A DNA stretch of 64,000 nucleotides from Pycnococcus provasolii (Eukaryota; Chlorophyta; Pseudoscourfieldiophyceae; Pseudoscourfieldiales; Pycnococcaceae), in assembly GCA_938743325.2 (NCBI GenBank), contig OW568893.1:434001-498000 (forward strand), in the 5' to 3' direction. The notes under the pieces were generated by a model, which searched no databases, was not told where the DNA came from, and worked only from the letters and a program-made list of their open reading frames with translations. Shown here piece after piece: positions 45,438 to 61,400 of this stretch. The position numbers were made by a program, and so were the translations under genes. The stretch's first letter is position 1; each line of letters begins with the position of its first letter.

Positions 45438-47231
45438 CTAGTTCCAAGGGATTGCTGCGAGGCGGCGCTCGAGGTAGCCCGGGCAGTTGAGCAATGCAGC
45501 CTTCTCCAGGTCGTAGTCCCACTGCGGGAACAAGTTGATGTCCGAGAATGGCGCGGATTTCGGGAAGAGTTGAGACACGACCTGGTTCAGCCCAAAGAAT
45601 TCTTCCTCGACCATTGGCGCCTTATTGATGGCATGGATTATGGCCTTCCTCACATTGATGTCGTCGGTCGGAGCCATGCCGGTGTTGAGAACGATGACCG
45701 TGTTCTGGAATACGTCCGAGCGGATTGTCTCGAAGGTACCGCTGTGCTTGGTCTCAAAGTTGCGCACCTGAGAGCTGGTGAGCGGCCCAATGCCAAGCGC
45801 CATGTCCAAGTCCCCAGAAAGAAGTGCGGCCTCCACCGCGTCCGTGTCGTTGAAGTACTTCACTTCGAGGAACTCGATCGCGGGCGCACCGCCCCAGTAC
45901 GCCTCGTTCCTCGCGAAGAGAACACTAAGGTCCGTGGTGTTGTCCGCAGGGTCAACCTCCTTCGAAACGAATTTGAAGGGCCCCGTGCCGATCGGAGCCT
46001 TGAGGCCAACGCACGTCACGTTCTCGTAGAGGTGATTCCACTTTTCCGGACCGAAGCCGCCTTCACTTTGAGGGGTGCACGAGTTGTGCGTGTCCGTCTT
46101 CGTGCCTCCCTCCGCAAAGGCAGACGCAGCCGTCATCACCAAGGGGCGGAGGTACCCAAGTTCCTGAAGCAGCGGGTAGTACGGCGCGGACGTTTCGATT
46201 ACGAAACGACCCTCGGCGTCGCAGCTCCAAGACGATATGATTTCCGGAAGGCCGTACCACAAGTGCCGTTCTTTCACCGTGGGGTTCAGGACGTGGTCGA
46301 AATTCAGCTTGGCGACGCTGCAGTTCCAGCTGCTTCCGTCGTGGAACTTAACGCCCTCCCGAAGCGTGAAGACGGCGCGCTGGCCGTCGCCGTTGTTCGT
46401 GACTTCCCACTCGGTGGCAAGCGCTGGCTCGATAGCTCCGTCCTTGCCATAACGGACAAGGCCCTCGTAGATCCAGTTGTTCACGAACAGCTCGTTCGGG
46501 AAGTAGAGATGGGGATTCAGTGGGCCAACCGACTGGAACAGCCCGTTCGTGGTTCCAGGAGCCACTGTCACGTTCGCAGAGCCGGAAAGGATGCGCACGT
46601 CGTTGAGGTCGTAGGCCCACAGCTGATTACCGGGCAGGACGCCGGTCAGGCGGCGATTGAACACGTAGGGGGCGCGCTCGCCCCACAGCGGGACGTTGAA
46701 CGCCTCGCCGTGCACGTCGCGGAGAATCTCTTCCCACCCCTTGGCAATCTTTGACTGGTCCAGCTCCTTCTGTACAGCCTCGATCTTGCTCATCAGCGAC
46801 TCCCGGGTCAGCGGCGCCGTCAAATTTTCCAGCGCCACGTGGTGGGCATTGGCCGTTGCCTGGCGCCACGATGTGGCGTAGCTGTGGGGATCGTACGGCG
46901 CGCCCCACGTCTTGCTCATGAACATATTGAAGGCACCCTGACTCATCAGCTCCCCCCACACCTCGCGATCGACCTCGCTCGTGTTGACTGAGATTCCAAT
47001 CGCCGCTAGGTCCCGCGTGATCTCGTCCACCACAGCCGACGCGTGCGGATCGCCCTCCTTTACGATGAAGTCGACGGAGAGCGGCCTGCAGTCGTCGGGC
47101 GAGAAGGCGGGGATGCCAAGACCGCCGCCACTTCCCGTGATAGCACTCTCCTCCTCCAGCGTGTCAGCGTCCGCCGGCAGCAGCGACCCAGCCAGGAGCA
47201 GGAGCAGCGATGCTAGGCGTGGTGTCGGCAT
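45438..47231 (-). CDS. Secreted NikA-like (SBP_bac_5) solute-binding protein, circularly permuted
   Basis: 597 residues from the ATG at 47231 (a GTG upstream at 47390 is ignored). MPTPRLASLLLLLAGSLLPADA is a clear signal peptide. Residues about 45-210 (LSVDFIVKEG, ITRDLAAIGISVN, MFMSKTWGAPYDPHSYATSW, LHDEA-like VHGEAFNVPLWG) correspond to the C-terminal part of bacterial family-5 solute-binding proteins such as NikA. Residues about 220-597 (GPLNPHLYFPNELFVNNW, YEGLVRYGKDGAIEPALA, FTLREGVKFHDG, APIGTGPFKF, RNEAYWGG, INVRKAIIHAINKAPM, WDYDLEKAALL) correspond to the N-terminal and central parts. The halves are therefore in reverse order. Binding of nickel, a metal chelate or peptide is inferred from family. 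No ABC transporter gene is nearby. Confidence 0.88.
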   Translation of the reverse strand: MPTPRLASLLLLLAGSLLPADADTLEEESAITGSGGGLGIPAFSPDDCRPLSVDFIVKEGDPHASAVVDEITRDLAAIGISVNTSEVDREVWGELMSQGAFNMFMSKTWGAPYDPHSYATSWRQATANAHHVALENLTAPLTRESLMSKIEAVQKELDQSKIAKGWEEILRDVHGEAFNVPLWGERAPYVFNRRLTGVLPGNQLWAYDLNDVRILSGSANVTVAPGTTNGLFQSVGPLNPHLYFPNELFVNNWIYEGLVRYGKDGAIEPALATEWEVTNNGDGQRAVFTLREGVKFHDGSSWNCSVAKLNFDHVLNPTVKERHLWYGLPEIISSWSCDAEGRFVIETSAPYYPLLQELGYLRPLVMTAASAFAEGGTKTDTHNSCTPQSEGGFGPEKWNHLYENVTCVGLKAPIGTGPFKFVSKEVDPADNTTDLSVLFARNEAYWGGAPAIEFLEVKYFNDTDAVEAALLSGDLDMALGIGPLTSSQVRNFETKHSGTFETIRSDVFQNTVIVLNTGMAPTDDINVRKAIIHAINKAPMVEEEFFGLNQVVSQLFPKSAPFSDINLFPQWDYDLEKAALLNCPGYLERRLAAIPWN

Positions 47232-49516: not shown

Positions 49517-49727
49517 CAAGAATGAGTTACAAGTGTAAAGAAAAGAAGAAGCGCGCCGCCAGCGCGCCAGCAGCAAAGCGCGTCGAGCGATCGTGATCAC
49601 ACGATCGCTATCTTTACATCAATGGAAAACGTCTTGAGTTGTTTATTCCAAAGGGGGGGATTATAGTGGGCTGTCAGTCACCCACTATAAATACACCACG
49701 TCCTGAAAAAGTCAAGACGTAAAACCA
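49517..49727 (-). mobile_element. LTR-like repeat (copia family), copy A
   Basis: A ~210-bp block nearly identical to 62025-62231 in the same orientation. On the minus strand it runs from CGTCTTGAC, through the 9-bp inverted repeat TATAGTGGG...CCCACTATA, to GTAACTCATTCTTGAC. It begins at the stop codon of the integrase frame next to it, so it is likely the 3' LTR of that element. Exact TG/CA ends are unclear. Confidence 0.6.
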
Positions 49728-51085
49728 TGCTGCGATGACGAAATGATCTTCCCTGGTCCTTGGTAGATCAGAGCTCCGGGTTCTGCCGTGGTGCGCTCAT
49801 CATCGATTCCGACGTATAGGCCAGGCGTGCTCTTGGGCATGTGCTTCCCACCTCGGTTGTCAGGGTGAAGCCACATCATTGCATCGCAGCCGTAGATTCC
49901 CAAGGTATCGGACGTTGGTACTATGCCAGTGAGCATCGTCAGAGGTCGCTGCCAATCCACAGCTTTTCGTCGCACGCGGTTGAGAACTTGCCCCGCATGT
50001 CGAATTGCCAATGCGGCGTGAGTGAGGTAGTCTAGTCCAGCTGCATGGCACCAGCTTAGCGCCATCGCCTTCATGAGCTTGATGTGTACCTCCGCAAGTC
50101 CGGCCTGATGATGATCATAGTTGGTGCTCGGCTCGATGAGGATGTCTTTGGAAGTGATGAAGTCCCTCGAACTTTGGCTCAGAAATTCGCTGCCTCGGTC
50201 AAAGCGGATGGCTTTGGTGATCTTCTGGTATTTTGCGTAGAAGGCCAGAATCTCCTGCAGCTTGATCTTGTAATCTCCTGGGTTGTTGATGAATCTGACG
50301 TGAAGGTATCGTGTGCGGCTATCGACGGAGACAAGCAGCGAATTTGCATTGCCAATGGCCGTGTGCGTCAGGGGAATGATGTCCATGACGAGCCGTTCAC
50401 CTGCTTCTGGATACCAGCTGAAGGCATCCTTGTGGCTGAGCTGTCCTTTGCGATGCGCTGTCGCGGAATCGCAACTTGAGCACGCAGGCATTGCCGCTTC
50501 GTCGAAGTACTCTGTGCCTTTGATGTAACCTTCACGTTGCATCATGCGCAGCATCTCCCTGGAGGCATGTCCGTGTTTCATGTGCGTCTCCAGATTACGT
50601 CGCTCTTTTGCAGACCATCCCTCAGGTCCGGCGCTCTTTTGCCGATTCTGCGATAAACCGAACATGCCCGCGAACTCGGCGTCGTGCATAGCGTCTATCA
50701 GTTCGTCCGACGCTTGCGTTATGTCAAGGCCCATAGATTTGAATCGGTCGGTGTCAGAGTCTGTTCGAACGCGCTTGGTCTTGTTGGCCGGTAGATGATT
50801 TGTCGTTGGTGCGATGTCGTCGTCGGCGTCATCGTTGTCATCGTCGAATTTGTCAGGGGAAAGTCCTTTCGTGTATTTGTCGATAAGAACTGCAGGCAGG
50901 TCGCTCCAGTATGGGGCTGCTCGCATGTCTTGTGCGAGGTTGCCGCCGCGCAAGTTGGCTGCGGGTTCCCACGTGAGCAATGCAGTGGATTCCCATTTGA
51001 TGAAGAGCAGGGACAGCGGCGGCGGCGGCGGCGGCGGCAGCGGCGGCAGCGGCATCGGCGGCATCGGCGGCATCGGCGGCTGAGC
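49712..51085 (-). mobile_element. Ty1/copia pol fragment: GAG-pre-integrase and integrase core
   Basis: An uninterrupted frame. The GAG-pre-integrase zinc site reads ETHMKHGHASREML and PACSSCDSATAH. The integrase DDE triad is visible in GERLVMDIIPL, AIRFDRGSEF and HHQAGLAEVHIKLMKAM. The frame ends with the post-integrase GLYVGIDDE...GKIISSSQHGF and a stop at the LTR. Reverse transcriptase and RNase H are missing. Upstream of about 51085 the frame enters a GCC-repeat region shared with an overlapping ORF. Non-autonomous remnant. Confidence 0.8.
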
Positions 51086-51622
51086 CGTCTTCGTTGCCAG
51101 GTTCAACGACAGCTTCAGGTTCACCTCCCAAATCGTCGTGCACACCACCGACGTGGTTCGTCGTGTGGTTCGTGTTCGTGTGGTTCGTGTCCAGTAAGGA
51201 TGCGGCCGCGCGCGGGTTCGCAAGCGCCCACATGGCGCGCCGCGTACGCTCGACAACGTCGACCTTCGTTTCCCCACTCCCCTTAGTAGCCCAAAACTTA
51301 GCCCAAAAGACCTCCAGTTTGTTGACGATGTACGGCCTGTCAACCTTTCGGTAGCGCGCCCAGAGTCCACATGTGCGCGTGAGCGCCAGCTCAGGACTAC
51401 ATGCCGACGAGTCCCACTTGAACTCGTCGGTGCGCTTGACCATGTTATCGACGGCGCGCCTGTAGAAATCAGACATCTTGCTCTCCAGTACGCCTGTCGT
51501 TGCCTGACCCTTTTTTTGCACGTTCACACCCGCGTGGACGAGCGCGCAGACCTCGCACTGCGTCCATCTCCTCCTCTTGCTCCCCTCCGTTCCCTCGCCA
51601 GCACTGGCAGCACTGCGGATAG

Positions 51623-58413: not shown

Positions 58414-60852
58414 TCATTTCGGTCCCTCCAATACGAACGTGTCGCCAATCGTCGTCGCTTCCGCAACAAGGAATGCAAGCAGACGGCTTGCGGCATACTC
58501 GGAAGCAACTGCCTCAAATTCCTGCATCATTCGCTCATCACCCGTGCTCTTGGCTTGCGTCAACGCTGCCGCCTTCGCATTCACGTTTCGCATCACCGCT
58601 CTTTCTCGCGCAGCTGCAAACGTGCGAAGGAGGTTGAGCGGAAGCTGGTACCTCGCCCTCGTGCTAGCGGATATCTTCACATCATCATACACAAACACCG
58701 GATTCATCTCGTCGGGGTCAAGCTCCATATTGTAGACGGCGTGTGCGTGCGGCCAAGACTCTCGCGTGACAACCACCTTGTACACGCCATCTGTCCCGGC
58801 ACGCCACTGTAGACGTTCTTCACGTGGCTGCTGGCGGTGACGAGCTTTCACAACAATCGAAGCGCCATCAGGCATGAGTGCTGCGACGCTGGATGGAAGT
58901 TGCTGTTGTTGTGCTGCTGCTGATTTAGCTTCGTCGTCGTCGTTGCCCGGCGTAATGTTCTCTTCTGCTGTTGCGCCATCATCGTTTGAAGTAGCGGGAA
59001 AGAGAGTACGCCACCATGCAGCTAATCGTTCAACAAACGTTGTTGTTGTCGTCGTCGTCGGCGATGGTGGTGGCAGAGGTGTCTCTTCTTCTGCGCCAAC
59101 TTCGACAACCTTTGCCAAGCTAGCACCGTCATCATCCTCGCCGTCGTCATGCTCAATTGTTTCCTTAATCGTCTTGGCGTAGCTGCCACTCGTCGTGTCA
59201 TCAACACGTCCCCACACGATTGGACCGCGGCTCGAGCCTTTGATATTTTCGATGCCGTCATCCTCACTCATCAGGTACACAGCCTGTAGCGGCCGGTCGA
59301 GGTACGCACGCACGCGCGAGGTGCGTTCTTGCGGCGTTGATGAAGAAGTGGGTGGTGGTGACTCAACGTCATTGGCAGACGCAATCCATGTGGACAAGTC
59401 GCGCCCTTGAAGTTGGCGTTGGCTCGTGCCGACGTTCGCAAGCACGTCCGCAGCTGGAGAAAAGTCGTGCGTGAGTCCCATGCGCTCCCATTCAGGCACC
59501 CACGATAGACGCAGCATTGCACAGAGGGTAGGTGCCAGATCTACCGCGGCCATCGCACGTTCGAACGTCGCTCCAGCAGGCAAATATTTCCCTCGCATAT
59601 AAAGGGGAACACGCGAACTCTCGTCCTGTGGTCTGTGCTTGCCCACAAAGCCGTGGCTACCAAGCATGTCGCCGTGATCTGTCGTCCACACAGTAATCGC
59701 GTCATTCTTGTAGTCGCTGCCCCAGATCGCGTCCATGCCTCTCGTCATGCGACCCACCTCCACATCGATCGTCTCGACGAGACCGTAGTAGCCCGCGAGT
59801 TTGCGGCGGAAGTGTGAATTCTTTGCAATTTTCTCAGGAGTATTGCGCCGAGCGCGCGTCGACGCGGGCGGTATGTCACCATCGTACAACCTGTTGCTTT
59901 GGCGCCGTTTTAGATTGGGCAGCACGTCGCCGCGCATGAGAGCGTCAAGAAGATCCTCACCATCCGATGATGGTGGTGCCGCTGCCGCCATCGTGGTGTG
60001 GTTGCCCTCTCCACCGCTGTGACCCCATCGGAATTTCCCGTACGGCGCACAGTAGCTCGTCGGCGGTTCTCGTTCGAAGAGGTCGTACTGCGCATCGCAA
60101 CCGCCGTTCCAGTGATGTGGTGGACCATACGATACAGCCAAGAATATCGGCTGCGGGCAAAGACCTCGGTTAACGTTTCGCTGCTGACTTTTTTTGTGAG
60201 ATTGGAGAATCTCAAGCGCACGATCCGTGTGCCAAGTAGGTTGGTATTCGCTGATGAGTTTGTTGTCGTGCTTAAAGTTTTTGTAGTTGTGCATGTCCGC
60301 ATCGGTGTCGATGATGATATCCATGCCTGCCGCCTTTGCGTGACGGTGCGTGTCCCAATGACCGTTGCCGAGGTGCCACTTGCCCACCCAGGCCGTTTTG
60401 TATCCTGCGCCACGAAGCACATGTGCTAGGGTGGCTGTCGTATCGATGCCATCACGCGCGTAGCCTGGAACGGGAAGCGGATGTCGTGCCCGATTTGTCG
60501 CCACACCCACGCTTTGTGGATATCGGCCAGTCAGCATGGATGCGCGATTAGGACTGCATGCAGGAAATGTCGCATAGGCAAACTTCACCTCGACACTTTG
60601 GTTTCTGAGGATGTCGAGGTTTGGTGTCAGCGCTTGATTCTGCTCGTGGTCTGGCGTGTACGACCACTGATCTGCCATGATCAACACAAGGTTTGATGGG
60701 CAGTCTTCTTCTTTTTGGTTGTTGTTGTTGCTGCTGCTGGTGGTGGATGCTTGCTGCTGCTGCGCGTGAACATCCGTTATCACCAGAATTGCCACTACTG
60801 CAAGAACAACAAGCAGGAAGCGAAGAGTAGAAGTGGAAGAAGCCATCATCAT
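58414..60852 (-). CDS. Secreted type I sulfatase
   Basis: 812 residues from the ATG at 60852 (the TTG at 60882 is ignored; two further ATGs follow directly). A signal peptide (about 1-30, LRFLLVVLAVVAILVITDVHA) and a Gln/Asn/Ser-rich spacer precede the sulfatase domain. LVLIMADQWS supplies metal ligands. CSPNRASMLTG contains Cys99, which becomes formylglycine. KTAWVGKWHLGN, TDHGDMLGSHG and GKHRPQDESSRVPLYMRG complete the active site. Long Asp/Glu- and Thr-rich inserts (about 540-660), with a (GTC)n-encoded Thr run, separate this from a C-terminal domain with DPDEMNPVFV. Substrate likely a sulfated polysaccharide or ester; inference. Bacterial-style choline-sulfatase-type motifs are present. 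Confidence 0.9.
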   Translation of the reverse strand: MMMASSTSTLRFLLVVLAVVAILVITDVHAQQQQASTTSSSNNNNQKEEDCPSNLVLIMADQWSYTPDHEQNQALTPNLDILRNQSVEVKFAYATFPACSPNRASMLTGRYPQSVGVATNRARHPLPVPGYARDGIDTTATLAHVLRGAGYKTAWVGKWHLGNGHWDTHRHAKAAGMDIIIDTDADMHNYKNFKHDNKLISEYQPTWHTDRALEILQSHKKSQQRNVNRGLCPQPIFLAVSYGPPHHWNGGCDAQYDLFEREPPTSYCAPYGKFRWGHSGGEGNHTTMAAAAPPSSDGEDLLDALMRGDVLPNLKRRQSNRLYDGDIPPASTRARRNTPEKIAKNSHFRRKLAGYYGLVETIDVEVGRMTRGMDAIWGSDYKNDAITVWTTDHGDMLGSHGFVGKHRPQDESSRVPLYMRGKYLPAGATFERAMAAVDLAPTLCAMLRLSWVPEWERMGLTHDFSPAADVLANVGTSQRQLQGRDLSTWIASANDVESPPPTSSSTPQERTSRVRAYLDRPLQAVYLMSEDDGIENIKGSSRGPIVWGRVDDTTSGSYAKTIKETIEHDDGEDDDGASLAKVVEVGAEEETPLPPPSPTTTTTTTFVERLAAWWRTLFPATSNDDGATAEENITPGNDDDEAKSAAAQQQQLPSSVAALMPDGASIVVKARHRQQPREERLQWRAGTDGVYKVVVTRESWPHAHAVYNMELDPDEMNPVFVYDDVKISASTRARYQLPLNLLRTFAAARERAVMRNVNAKAAALTQAKSTGDERMMQEFEAVASEYAASRLLAFLVAEATTIGDTFVLEGPK

Positions 60853-61400
60853 GCGATGCGATGGTGGTGGAGGAGAAGTCAAGGAGTCGCCACCAACTTA
60901 CTAATATTCACCACGACGACGACGACGACGACGACGACGGCAAGTAAGTTTTTAAATAGCTGCCCCCGCCGCTCCTCCTCCTCGTCACTCTCAAGTCATC
61001 ACGCGCGTCTCAACATTTACTACCTGTGCTCCATTTTGCGTGACCTGTGGTATGAGTGGTGGTTGAAGTTCGAATTGTCCCACGTTCCGCCGCTCGGAAA
61101 AATCTGGCGAAATCGGGGATACGTCGTTGGTATAATTGCGTTGCGTTGAACTATTCTCCCGGGGCCCCCAACGGCCCCCCTGGGATCCCGGTTGTTGTAT
61201 GGTGGACAACGTAGCTGACATCATGACGGCACAAGAGGCACGACTAGGTGAGTTGTTTTGTTGCTGCGCATAGTGAGTTGTATGAGCTTGCCGCGAAAAG
61301 CCGAAAACCAGGCTTCTCCCAAGGGCTCCCAAGTCCCAAGAACCACGCCAAAATGGCCGAGGAATGTGTGAAAGACCATAACAGGTACCACAACTCCATG
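60853..61400. other. Intergenic region with (ACG)n
   Basis: 548 bp. An ACG run of nine units lies at 60913-60940, 60-90 bp upstream of the sulfatase start. AAATCGGGGATA near 61100 and GGGGCCCCCAACGGCCCCCCTGGG (61160s) are GC-rich patches. No gene recognised. Confidence 0.4.

What the first reader, a model, noticed from the sequence alone, without database searches (positions are those of the whole stretch)
45438..47231. Naturally circularly permuted NikA-like solute-binding protein in a eukaryote
Directly seen: after a signal peptide, the protein starts with segments (DLAAIGISVN, TWGAPYDPHSY, WGERAPYVF) that in bacterial SBP family 5 lie in the C-terminal third. It then continues with the segments that normally start the mature protein (GPLNPHLYFPNELF, FTLREGVKFHDG) and ends at WDYDLEKAALLNCPGY, just where the first block should follow. 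Known: in NikA/OppA-type proteins both lobes are built from segments far apart in sequence, so a circular permutation can keep the fold. Inference: horizontal acquisition from bacteria, then tandem duplication and trimming. A cysteine near each new terminus (DDCRPL and LLNCPG) could bridge them. With no ABC permease nearby and a secretory signal, it may scavenge nickel or peptides at the cell surface, or act as a lumenal or wall protein.
Basis: partly seen in the sequence, partly recalled or inferred. Interest (0 to 1): 0.88.

Follow-up and report, generated by a model that had tools for sequence, protein, structure and literature searches.

The report
Circularly permuted algal metal-capture protein
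A bacterial nickel-binding protein had its two ends joined and was cut open elsewhere, and this rearranged form is found in diatoms, dinoflagellates, a cryptophyte, pelagophytes and a green alga, usually with a membrane anchor at the new end, so it looks like a surface trap for scarce metals.

Summary
The ORF lies on the minus strand, 47231 to 45438 (597 aa, one exon). Residues about 46-208 match NikA 335-476 and residues 217-586 match NikA 2-324, by sequence and by predicted fold. It is not a one-off: the Pycnococcus provasolii genome has two more permuted paralogs and no native NikA hit. Of 121 proteins mapped, 111 are permuted, 10 hold the N-block only, none is native. Named relatives are diatoms, pelagophytes, a bolidophyte, a cryptophyte, dinoflagellates and this green alga. 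The 45 sampled for a tree form one clade (SH-aLRT 100) beside bacterial NikA: one ancient permutation is the simplest reading. The metal-chelate site is largely kept. Six cysteines that E. coli NikA lacks are nearly invariant; two flank the cut. Most relatives add a C-terminal membrane helix; the window protein lacks it. The family is very probably that of ZCRP-B, a Zn/Co-responsive plasma-membrane protein of diatoms (PMC9010474), whose main text has no word beginning 'permut'; I could not obtain a ZCRP-B sequence. Best reading: a permease-independent metal or metal-chelate receptor; the window copy looks secreted and soluble.

The parts
45438..47231 (-). ORF of the permuted NikA-like protein P0001, 597 aa, one exon, stop at 45438
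   Evidence: own-genome match without stops; database copy P0002 99% identical
47163..47231 (-). N-terminal hydrophobic stretch (residues 1-23), signal-peptide-like
   Evidence: hydropathy only; no dedicated signal-peptide predictor was used; the end at residue 23 is my estimate
46593..47096 (-). C-block, residues 46-213, equivalent to the C-terminal third of NikA (about 335-497)
46578..46610 (-). Joint, residues about 208-218: old C-terminus (about NikA 497) joined to old N-terminus (about NikA 5) by only a few residues
   Evidence: alignment
45474..46583 (-). N-block, residues 217-586, equivalent to NikA 2-324
47088..47090 (-). Cys48, conserved cysteine at the new N-terminus (NikA position 337)
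45483..45485 (-). Cys583, conserved cysteine at the new C-terminus (NikA position 320)
46893..46907 (-). WGAPY, residues 109-113, equivalent to NikA W398 to Y402 of the binding site
46839..46850 (-). Residues 128-131 (N-A-H-H): N128 stands at the NikA H416 position, two His lie 2-3 residues on
46257..46268 (-). R322-H323-L324-W325, equivalent to NikA R97, H98 and W100
46146..46148 (-). R362, equivalent to NikA R137
45438..45473 (-). New C-terminal tail, residues 587-597 and stop; no transmembrane helix, unlike most relatives, and no downstream exon found

Best explanation
This is a member of an algal family of circularly permuted NikA-like metal-binding proteins, very probably the family to which diatom ZCRP-B belongs. 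In what looks like one ancient event the ends of a NikA-like protein were joined and it was reopened in a native loop (NikA about 321-336); the opening is probably re-closed by a disulfide between two new cysteines. The two-lobe fold and most of the metal-chelate site survived. As no cognate ABC permease was found, the protein probably does not feed an ABC importer. It captures a metal or metal chelate (Ni, Zn, Co) outside the cell and hands it on, by endocytosis or to ZIP-type carriers. Most relatives are tied to the membrane by a helix at the new C-terminus. The window copy and one paralog have none and would act as soluble secreted binders. Shown: order, family spread, clade, site residues, cysteine conservation, helix by hydropathy, no NikB/C-type hit. 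Inferred: disulfide, ligand, uptake route, kinship with ZCRP-B.
For: Order. Fold: full model pLDDT 91.2, pTM 0.88; N-block to NikA 2-319 and C-block alone to NikA 335-476, NikA top in both lists. One clade: the 45 algal rows chosen of 112 stand together, SH-aLRT 100; 24 chosen rows again with six more bacterial sequences. Site, over 112 algal rows: R137 112, H98 112, W100 111, Y402 111, W398 110, R97 88, H416 85. All six cysteines in 103 of 112; E. coli NikA has none. Helix after C583 in 104 of 112, more positive charge after than before it in 97 of those 104. Own genome has Ni-SOD and urease and no NikB/C-type permease hit. Diatom ZCRP-B: NikA homolog, cell membrane by YFP, more abundant at low Zn/Co (PMC9010474); a T. 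pseudonana 'NikA' seen by proteomics (PMC3797725).
Against: No ligand is shown. The window protein has Asn at the H416 position. 24 of 112 rows, both own paralogs included, lack R97, and 23 of those 24 have Glu at 416, so ligands may differ. 62 of 112 rows lack a signal-peptide-like start, among them 10 of the 11 named diatom rows kept, which sits badly with an outward-facing domain. No T. pseudonana or P. tricornutum protein is named among the 120 listed hits of each of three searches (1597, 830 and 3127 hits in all), so the link to ZCRP-B rests on similarity of description. The paper puts the predicted membrane segment of P. tricornutum ZCRP-B near the N-terminus; here it is C-terminal. N-glycosylation motifs are not significantly enriched (7 against a shuffled mean of 3.98; 171 of 2000 shuffles as high). 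The C-block tree alone sets the algal clade nearer the CntA-like rows (support 85, long-branch warning).
Confidence: 0.72

Rival explanations
1. The permuted order is an artefact: misassembly, a missed intron or a chimeric gene model in this one genome.
For: Single genome window, no RNA-seq available here; the order is unusual.
Against: Three copies in the genome, on contigs C33, C10 and C35; 111 of 121 mapped proteins permuted, 0 native, from sources that include NCBI, MMETSP and EukProt; confident fold.
Confidence: 0.01
2. The protein is a peptide or other organic-solute receptor (Opp/Dpp-like) rather than a metal receptor.
Against: NikA leads every list, CntA comes next; R137, H98, W100, W398 and Y402 nearly invariant and H416 kept in 85 of 112; trees place the family beside NikA/CntA, away from the more distant family-5 rows.
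Confidence: 0.12
3. It is an intracellular membrane-tethered metal buffer: in members without a signal peptide the NikA-like domain faces the cytosol as a tail-anchored protein.
For: 62 of 112 rows have no hydrophobic leader, 58 of them starting with Met shortly before C48, and nearly all of them keep a C-terminal helix.
Against: 47 of 112 rows, the window protein included, have a signal-peptide-like leader; the six cysteines are kept in both groups, suggesting an oxidising compartment; charge bias puts the short tail inside (all); ZCRP-B-YFP at the cell membrane with most of the protein predicted outside (PMC9010474).
Confidence: 0.12
4. The permutation arose in a bacterium that was later the donor, so eukaryotes received an already permuted gene.
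For: Long stem below the algal clade (1.35 and 1.2 changes per site) leaves room for an unsampled donor; bacterial sampling here is partial.
Against: No permuted copy recognised in what was examined: 5 of 7 genome-contig loci in native order and 2 with an N-block match only; matches in 165 of 199 genomes of the phylum of G001, those listed being pieces of single blocks except two that reach a little across the joint (G151 160-330, G069 180-291 of 606 positions; not examined further); 0 of 299 genomes of the phylum of G002 at E<=1e-25 (no positive control of its own); 6 of 6 fetched plasmid-collection sequences native.
Confidence: 0.15

Closest known systems
NikA, nickel ABC transporter substrate-binding protein (TIGR02294; E. 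coli 1uiu, 1uiv, 3qim; Brucella 4oer)
   Same: Sequence, fold of both blocks, most binding-site residues
   Different: Order circularly permuted; six cysteines; often a C-terminal membrane helix; no NikB/C-type permease found; below the TIGR02294 cut-off (288.6 of 393 bits)
ZCRP-B of diatoms (Kellogg et al. 2022, PMC9010474)
   Same: As described there: eukaryotic algal NikA homolog, about 30% identical to E. coli NikA, one transmembrane segment, membrane location, no NikB/C detected
   Different: Permutation not mentioned in the main text (0 hits for 'permut'; supplements not seen); paper puts the membrane segment near the N-terminus and names diatoms, dinoflagellates and prymnesiophytes as holders, not green algae; the window protein lacks the membrane segment; no ZCRP-B sequence was compared here
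CntA, staphylopine-metal binding protein (5yh5, 5yh8, 5yhe)
   Same: Same fold class, next-best family after NikA
   Different: Native order, bacterial protein with ABC partners (recalled), weaker score
Natural circular permutants among bacterial binding proteins (glycine betaine- and molybdate-binding proteins, PMC2395249)
   Same: Natural circular permutation inside the binding-protein fold
   Different: Other proteins, under 24% identical to one another; not family 5, not eukaryotic
Phytotransferrin ISIP2a (as described in PMC9010474)
   Same: Works-like analogy: single-pass surface metal trap taken up by endocytosis
   Different: The paper reports no significant similarity between ZCRP-B and ISIP2a; iron; analogy proposed by the paper, not tested here

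Membership tests
NikA / SBP family 5 (TIGR02294, PF00496) | Sequence similarity to the family | tested here: met
   PF00496 1.2e-53, 183.1 bits over cut-off 32.4; TIGR02294 E 7.7e-86
NikA / SBP family 5 (TIGR02294, PF00496) | Score above the TIGR02294 equivalog cut-off (393 bits) | tested here: not met
   288.6 bits in three stretches; so called NikA-like, not NikA
NikA / SBP family 5 (TIGR02294, PF00496) | Native order of the blocks | tested here: not met
NikA / SBP family 5 (TIGR02294, PF00496) | Binding-site residues (numbering and roles recalled; H416 also in the title of 3qim) | tested here: inconclusive
   R97, H98, W100, R137, W398, Y402 kept in the window protein, H416 replaced by N with HH nearby
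NikA / SBP family 5 (TIGR02294, PF00496) | Works with NikB/NikC permeases | tested here: not met
   PF00528 in own genome: 2 hits, best matched by CysT and CysW; six-frame search, introns could hide a gene
ZCRP-B | NikA-like algal protein with about 30% identity to E. coli NikA | tested here: met
   34% over 361 and 25% over 180 alignment columns
ZCRP-B | Direct sequence similarity to P. tricornutum or T. pseudonana ZCRP-B | not testable with these tools
ZCRP-B | Single transmembrane segment | tested here: not met
   absent from the window protein, so the window protein is called a relative, not a ZCRP-B; present in 104 of 112 rows, at the C-terminus, by hydropathy
ZCRP-B | Induction by low Zn/Co | not testable with these tools
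   no expression data
Circular permutant of NikA | Both blocks homologous, exchanged order, joined old ends, new ends at one native loop | tested here: met
Circular permutant of NikA | Same overall fold retained | tested here: inconclusive
   predicted model confident (pLDDT 91.2, pTM 0.88) and the two blocks match NikA separately; no coordinates were available to superpose both at once

The most novel reading that the evidence does not exclude
The permutation was the enabling step: by moving the chain end to another place on the fold it let eukaryotes hang a bacterial-type periplasmic binding protein on a single membrane helix, with a conserved cytosolic tail motif, and use it without any ABC permease as an endocytic or hand-over receptor for scarce metals. 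It was then kept for a very long time, with two kinds of binding site, across unrelated algal lineages.
Probability: 0.4. Interest if true: 0.85.

Novelty: new variant of a known kind. Interest (0 to 1): 0.72.

Why it matters
Metal uptake by eukaryotic phytoplankton (Ni for urease and Ni-SOD, Zn and Co for carbonic anhydrase) is poorly explained at the receptor level. A conserved receptor family whose architecture has been read as plain NikA would change how its site, topology and partners are sought. It is also a clear natural case of circular permutation in a large two-lobe binding protein, apparently fixed once and kept across several algal lineages, so that permuted and native forms can be compared with each other and with engineered permutants used in biosensors.

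Tried and rejected
Viral origin: the A1 scan of viral contigs found no relative (40 stretches matched a pattern, none confirmed); 17 phage records matched in part, none covering 80% of the query. Native copy or missing half in the window: none. Hidden 3' exon with a membrane helix in the window or in paralog L003: tblastn of relatives' tails gave good matches only up to the LLNCP region; reading frames showed none that I recognised. Nearest bacterial donor: not resolved; the clade sits beside the bacterial NikA sampled. A family scan of 190 genomes of the class of G003 rang in 173, none over the NikA cut-off, and gave only distant outgroup rows. Excess of N-glycosylation motifs: not significant. 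Remnant of a tandem duplication: 0 of 121. Literature: ten searches listed no paper that I recognised as describing a permuted NikA or a permuted binding protein of algae; pertinent were PMC9010474 (outline and abstract, sections 6 and 10 in full, passages elsewhere), PMC3797725 (passages) and PMC2395249 (passages). Also looked into: PMC13284251 (passages in its reference list only; the 'nika' hit is an author's name), PMC6794264 and PMC2861598 (no occurrence of the terms).

Weak points: signal-peptide and membrane-helix calls are hydropathy thresholds of my own, not predictors. The grouping into two site types is by R97; one row without R97 (P0046) falls with the R97 rows in the tree, and the rows without R97 are one clade beside the others (P0046 apart) but not.

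Full report
WHAT IS THERE. The frame 45438-47231 is on the minus strand: ATG at 47231, 597 aa, no stop, one exon. Pfam finds SBP_bac_5 and NCBIfam finds NikA best, in three stretches (E 7.7e-86, 288.6 bits, below the curated 393). phmmer against the PDB puts residues 234-378 on NikA 11-151, 407-585 on 151-321 and 46-187 on 333-470. E. coli NikA read from NC_000913 agrees. The block that ends bacterial NikA therefore comes first here. The old ends are joined by a few residues and the cut lies in the native loop about 321-336.

GENOME AND NEIGHBOURS. The nearest database protein is PPROV_000982500 of Pycnococcus provasolii, 99% identical, a chlorophyte. Neighbouring frames include a 2-oxoacid dehydrogenase E2-type protein and a syndetin/Vps54-like protein, a PHD-finger protein and an NLI-type phosphatase, so this is a eukaryotic chromosome. 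The genome holds two more copies, on contigs C10 and C35. With the NikA profile three of three copies read C-block then N-block, and the nine matches all lie in those three places, so no native copy was found. Paralog C10 (664 aa) carries a C-terminal membrane helix; paralog C35 (590 aa) and the window copy do not.

SPREAD. A protein search found 1597 relatives, of which 120 are listed. I mapped P0001 plus those 120 onto five native Bacillales NikA-like proteins: 111 permuted, 0 native, 0 with both orders, 10 with the N-block only, most of these shorter than the rest. P0001 and P0002 are near-identical and counted apart. Named relatives (groups partly, otherwise recalled; two names are cut or coded in the output and read by me as Astrosyne and Pseudo-nitzschia multiseries) are diatoms (Cyclotella, Seminavis, Nitzschia, Conticribra, Pseudo-nitzschia, Skeletonema, Astrosyne, Cylindrotheca, Amphora), the bolidophyte Triparma, pelagophytes (Chrysophaeum, Chrysoreinhardia), the cryptophyte Rhodomonas and the dinoflagellate Symbiodinium.

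ORIGIN. With the blocks set in native order inside the script, 45 algal rows chosen of 112 form one clade with SH-aLRT 100 beside bacterial NikA, stem 1.35; the window protein is not resolved within it. Trees of each block alone, with 24 chosen algal rows, also give one algal clade at 100 each; the C-block tree carries long-branch warnings and sets the clade nearer the CntA-like rows. A protein search of 72,556 plasmid records gave 1031 with a match; of the seven listed rows with two pieces I fetched six, all native by BLASTP. Adding them keeps the clade at 100 and puts the window protein with the diatom/cryptophyte rows at 100. Among other bacteria no permuted copy was recognised: 7 genome-contig loci (5 native, 2 with an N-block match only); the listed matches in 199 genomes of the phylum of G001 (165 with a match), where two listed pieces reach a little across the joint and were not followed; 299 genomes of the phylum of G002 (0 at E<=1e-25; the tool notes that an empty answer without a positive control shows nothing). 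This fits one permutation, before the family diversified in algae. Whether it happened in a eukaryote or in an unsampled donor is open.

SITE AND CYSTEINES. Of 142 sequences (140 proteins and the two paralogs) 30 were dropped as incomplete or with inserts. Over the remaining 112, in E. coli mature numbering (residue roles recalled): R137 112, H98 112, W100 111, Y402 111, W398 110. R97 is kept in 88 (type I) and absent in 24 (type II, a label by residue, not always a clade). H416 is kept in 85, Glu in 23, Asn in 2 and Ser in 2. The window protein is type I with Asn at 416 and two His 2-3 residues on. Both own paralogs are type II. P0001 has exactly six cysteines, all conserved; 103 of 112 rows keep all six and E. 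coli NikA has none. C48 and C583 map to NikA 337 and 320, on the two lips of the cut loop, which makes a stapling disulfide likely but unproven.

ANCHOR AND TOPOLOGY. By hydropathy 104 of 112 rows have a helix after C583; the eight without include P0001, P0002, paralog C35 and rows that end early. In 97 of the 104 the charge after it exceeds that before it, which by the positive-inside rule places the binding domain outside. A tail motif GxPxF occurs in 89 of 105 tails of at least 40 aa, against 3 of 105 shuffled. 47 rows have a signal-peptide-like start, 62 do not, 3 are unclear. Those without include 10 of the 11 named diatom rows kept (the exception is P0121; Amphora was dropped as incomplete). 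This is unexplained.

HOW IT WORKS, AND WHAT IS KNOWN. Own-genome searches found Ni-SOD and urease, and PF00528 only in genes best matched by CysT and CysW, so a NikBC route is unlikely. Kellogg et al. 2022 (PMC9010474; abstract, sections 6 and 10 and passages) describe ZCRP-B, a diatom NikA homolog that is more abundant at low Zn/Co, sits at the cell membrane by YFP, and is proposed to trap metal for ZIP carriers or endocytosis; 'permut' does not occur in the main text. PMC3797725 (passages) reports a T. pseudonana 'NikA' as the most down-regulated protein under Fe limitation. I take the present family to be that of ZCRP-B, by inference. The window protein itself, which lacks the membrane segment, I call a relative. 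Natural permutation among other bacterial binding proteins is in print (PMC2395249, passages). None of my ten searches listed a paper that I recognised as describing a permuted NikA-like family.

VERDICT. Observation confirmed; interpretation partly supported and widened. New variant of a known kind.

Noticed in passing
L002 and L003 (own contigs C10:869909-871546 and C35:86998-88653): Two paralogs without R97, nearly identical to each other, only one with a C-terminal membrane helix, preceded by a VEKEVEKEV-type charged repeat.
   Followed up: partly
homologs P0003-P0140 in general: 62 of 112 rows, among them 10 of 11 named diatom rows, have no signal-peptide-like start; nearly all keep the six cysteines and a C-terminal helix. 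Their topology is unexplained.
   Followed up: partly
tails of relatives after C583: Motif E(K/R)xGxPxF in the short tail of 89 of 105 sequences, a possible sorting signal; most of the 16 without it are type II rows.
   Followed up: partly
window 49712-51370 (-): Retroelement-like frame with weak integrase-core and retroviral-type SH3 matches (both just under the Pfam cut-offs); described only.
   Followed up: no
own contig C46 (80,243 bases): Carries a CysT-like gene and may by its size be the plastid genome (size recalled), while a CysW-like gene lies on contig C31.
   Followed up: no
window 58414-60882 (-): Sulfatase-domain protein of 822 aa.
   Followed up: no
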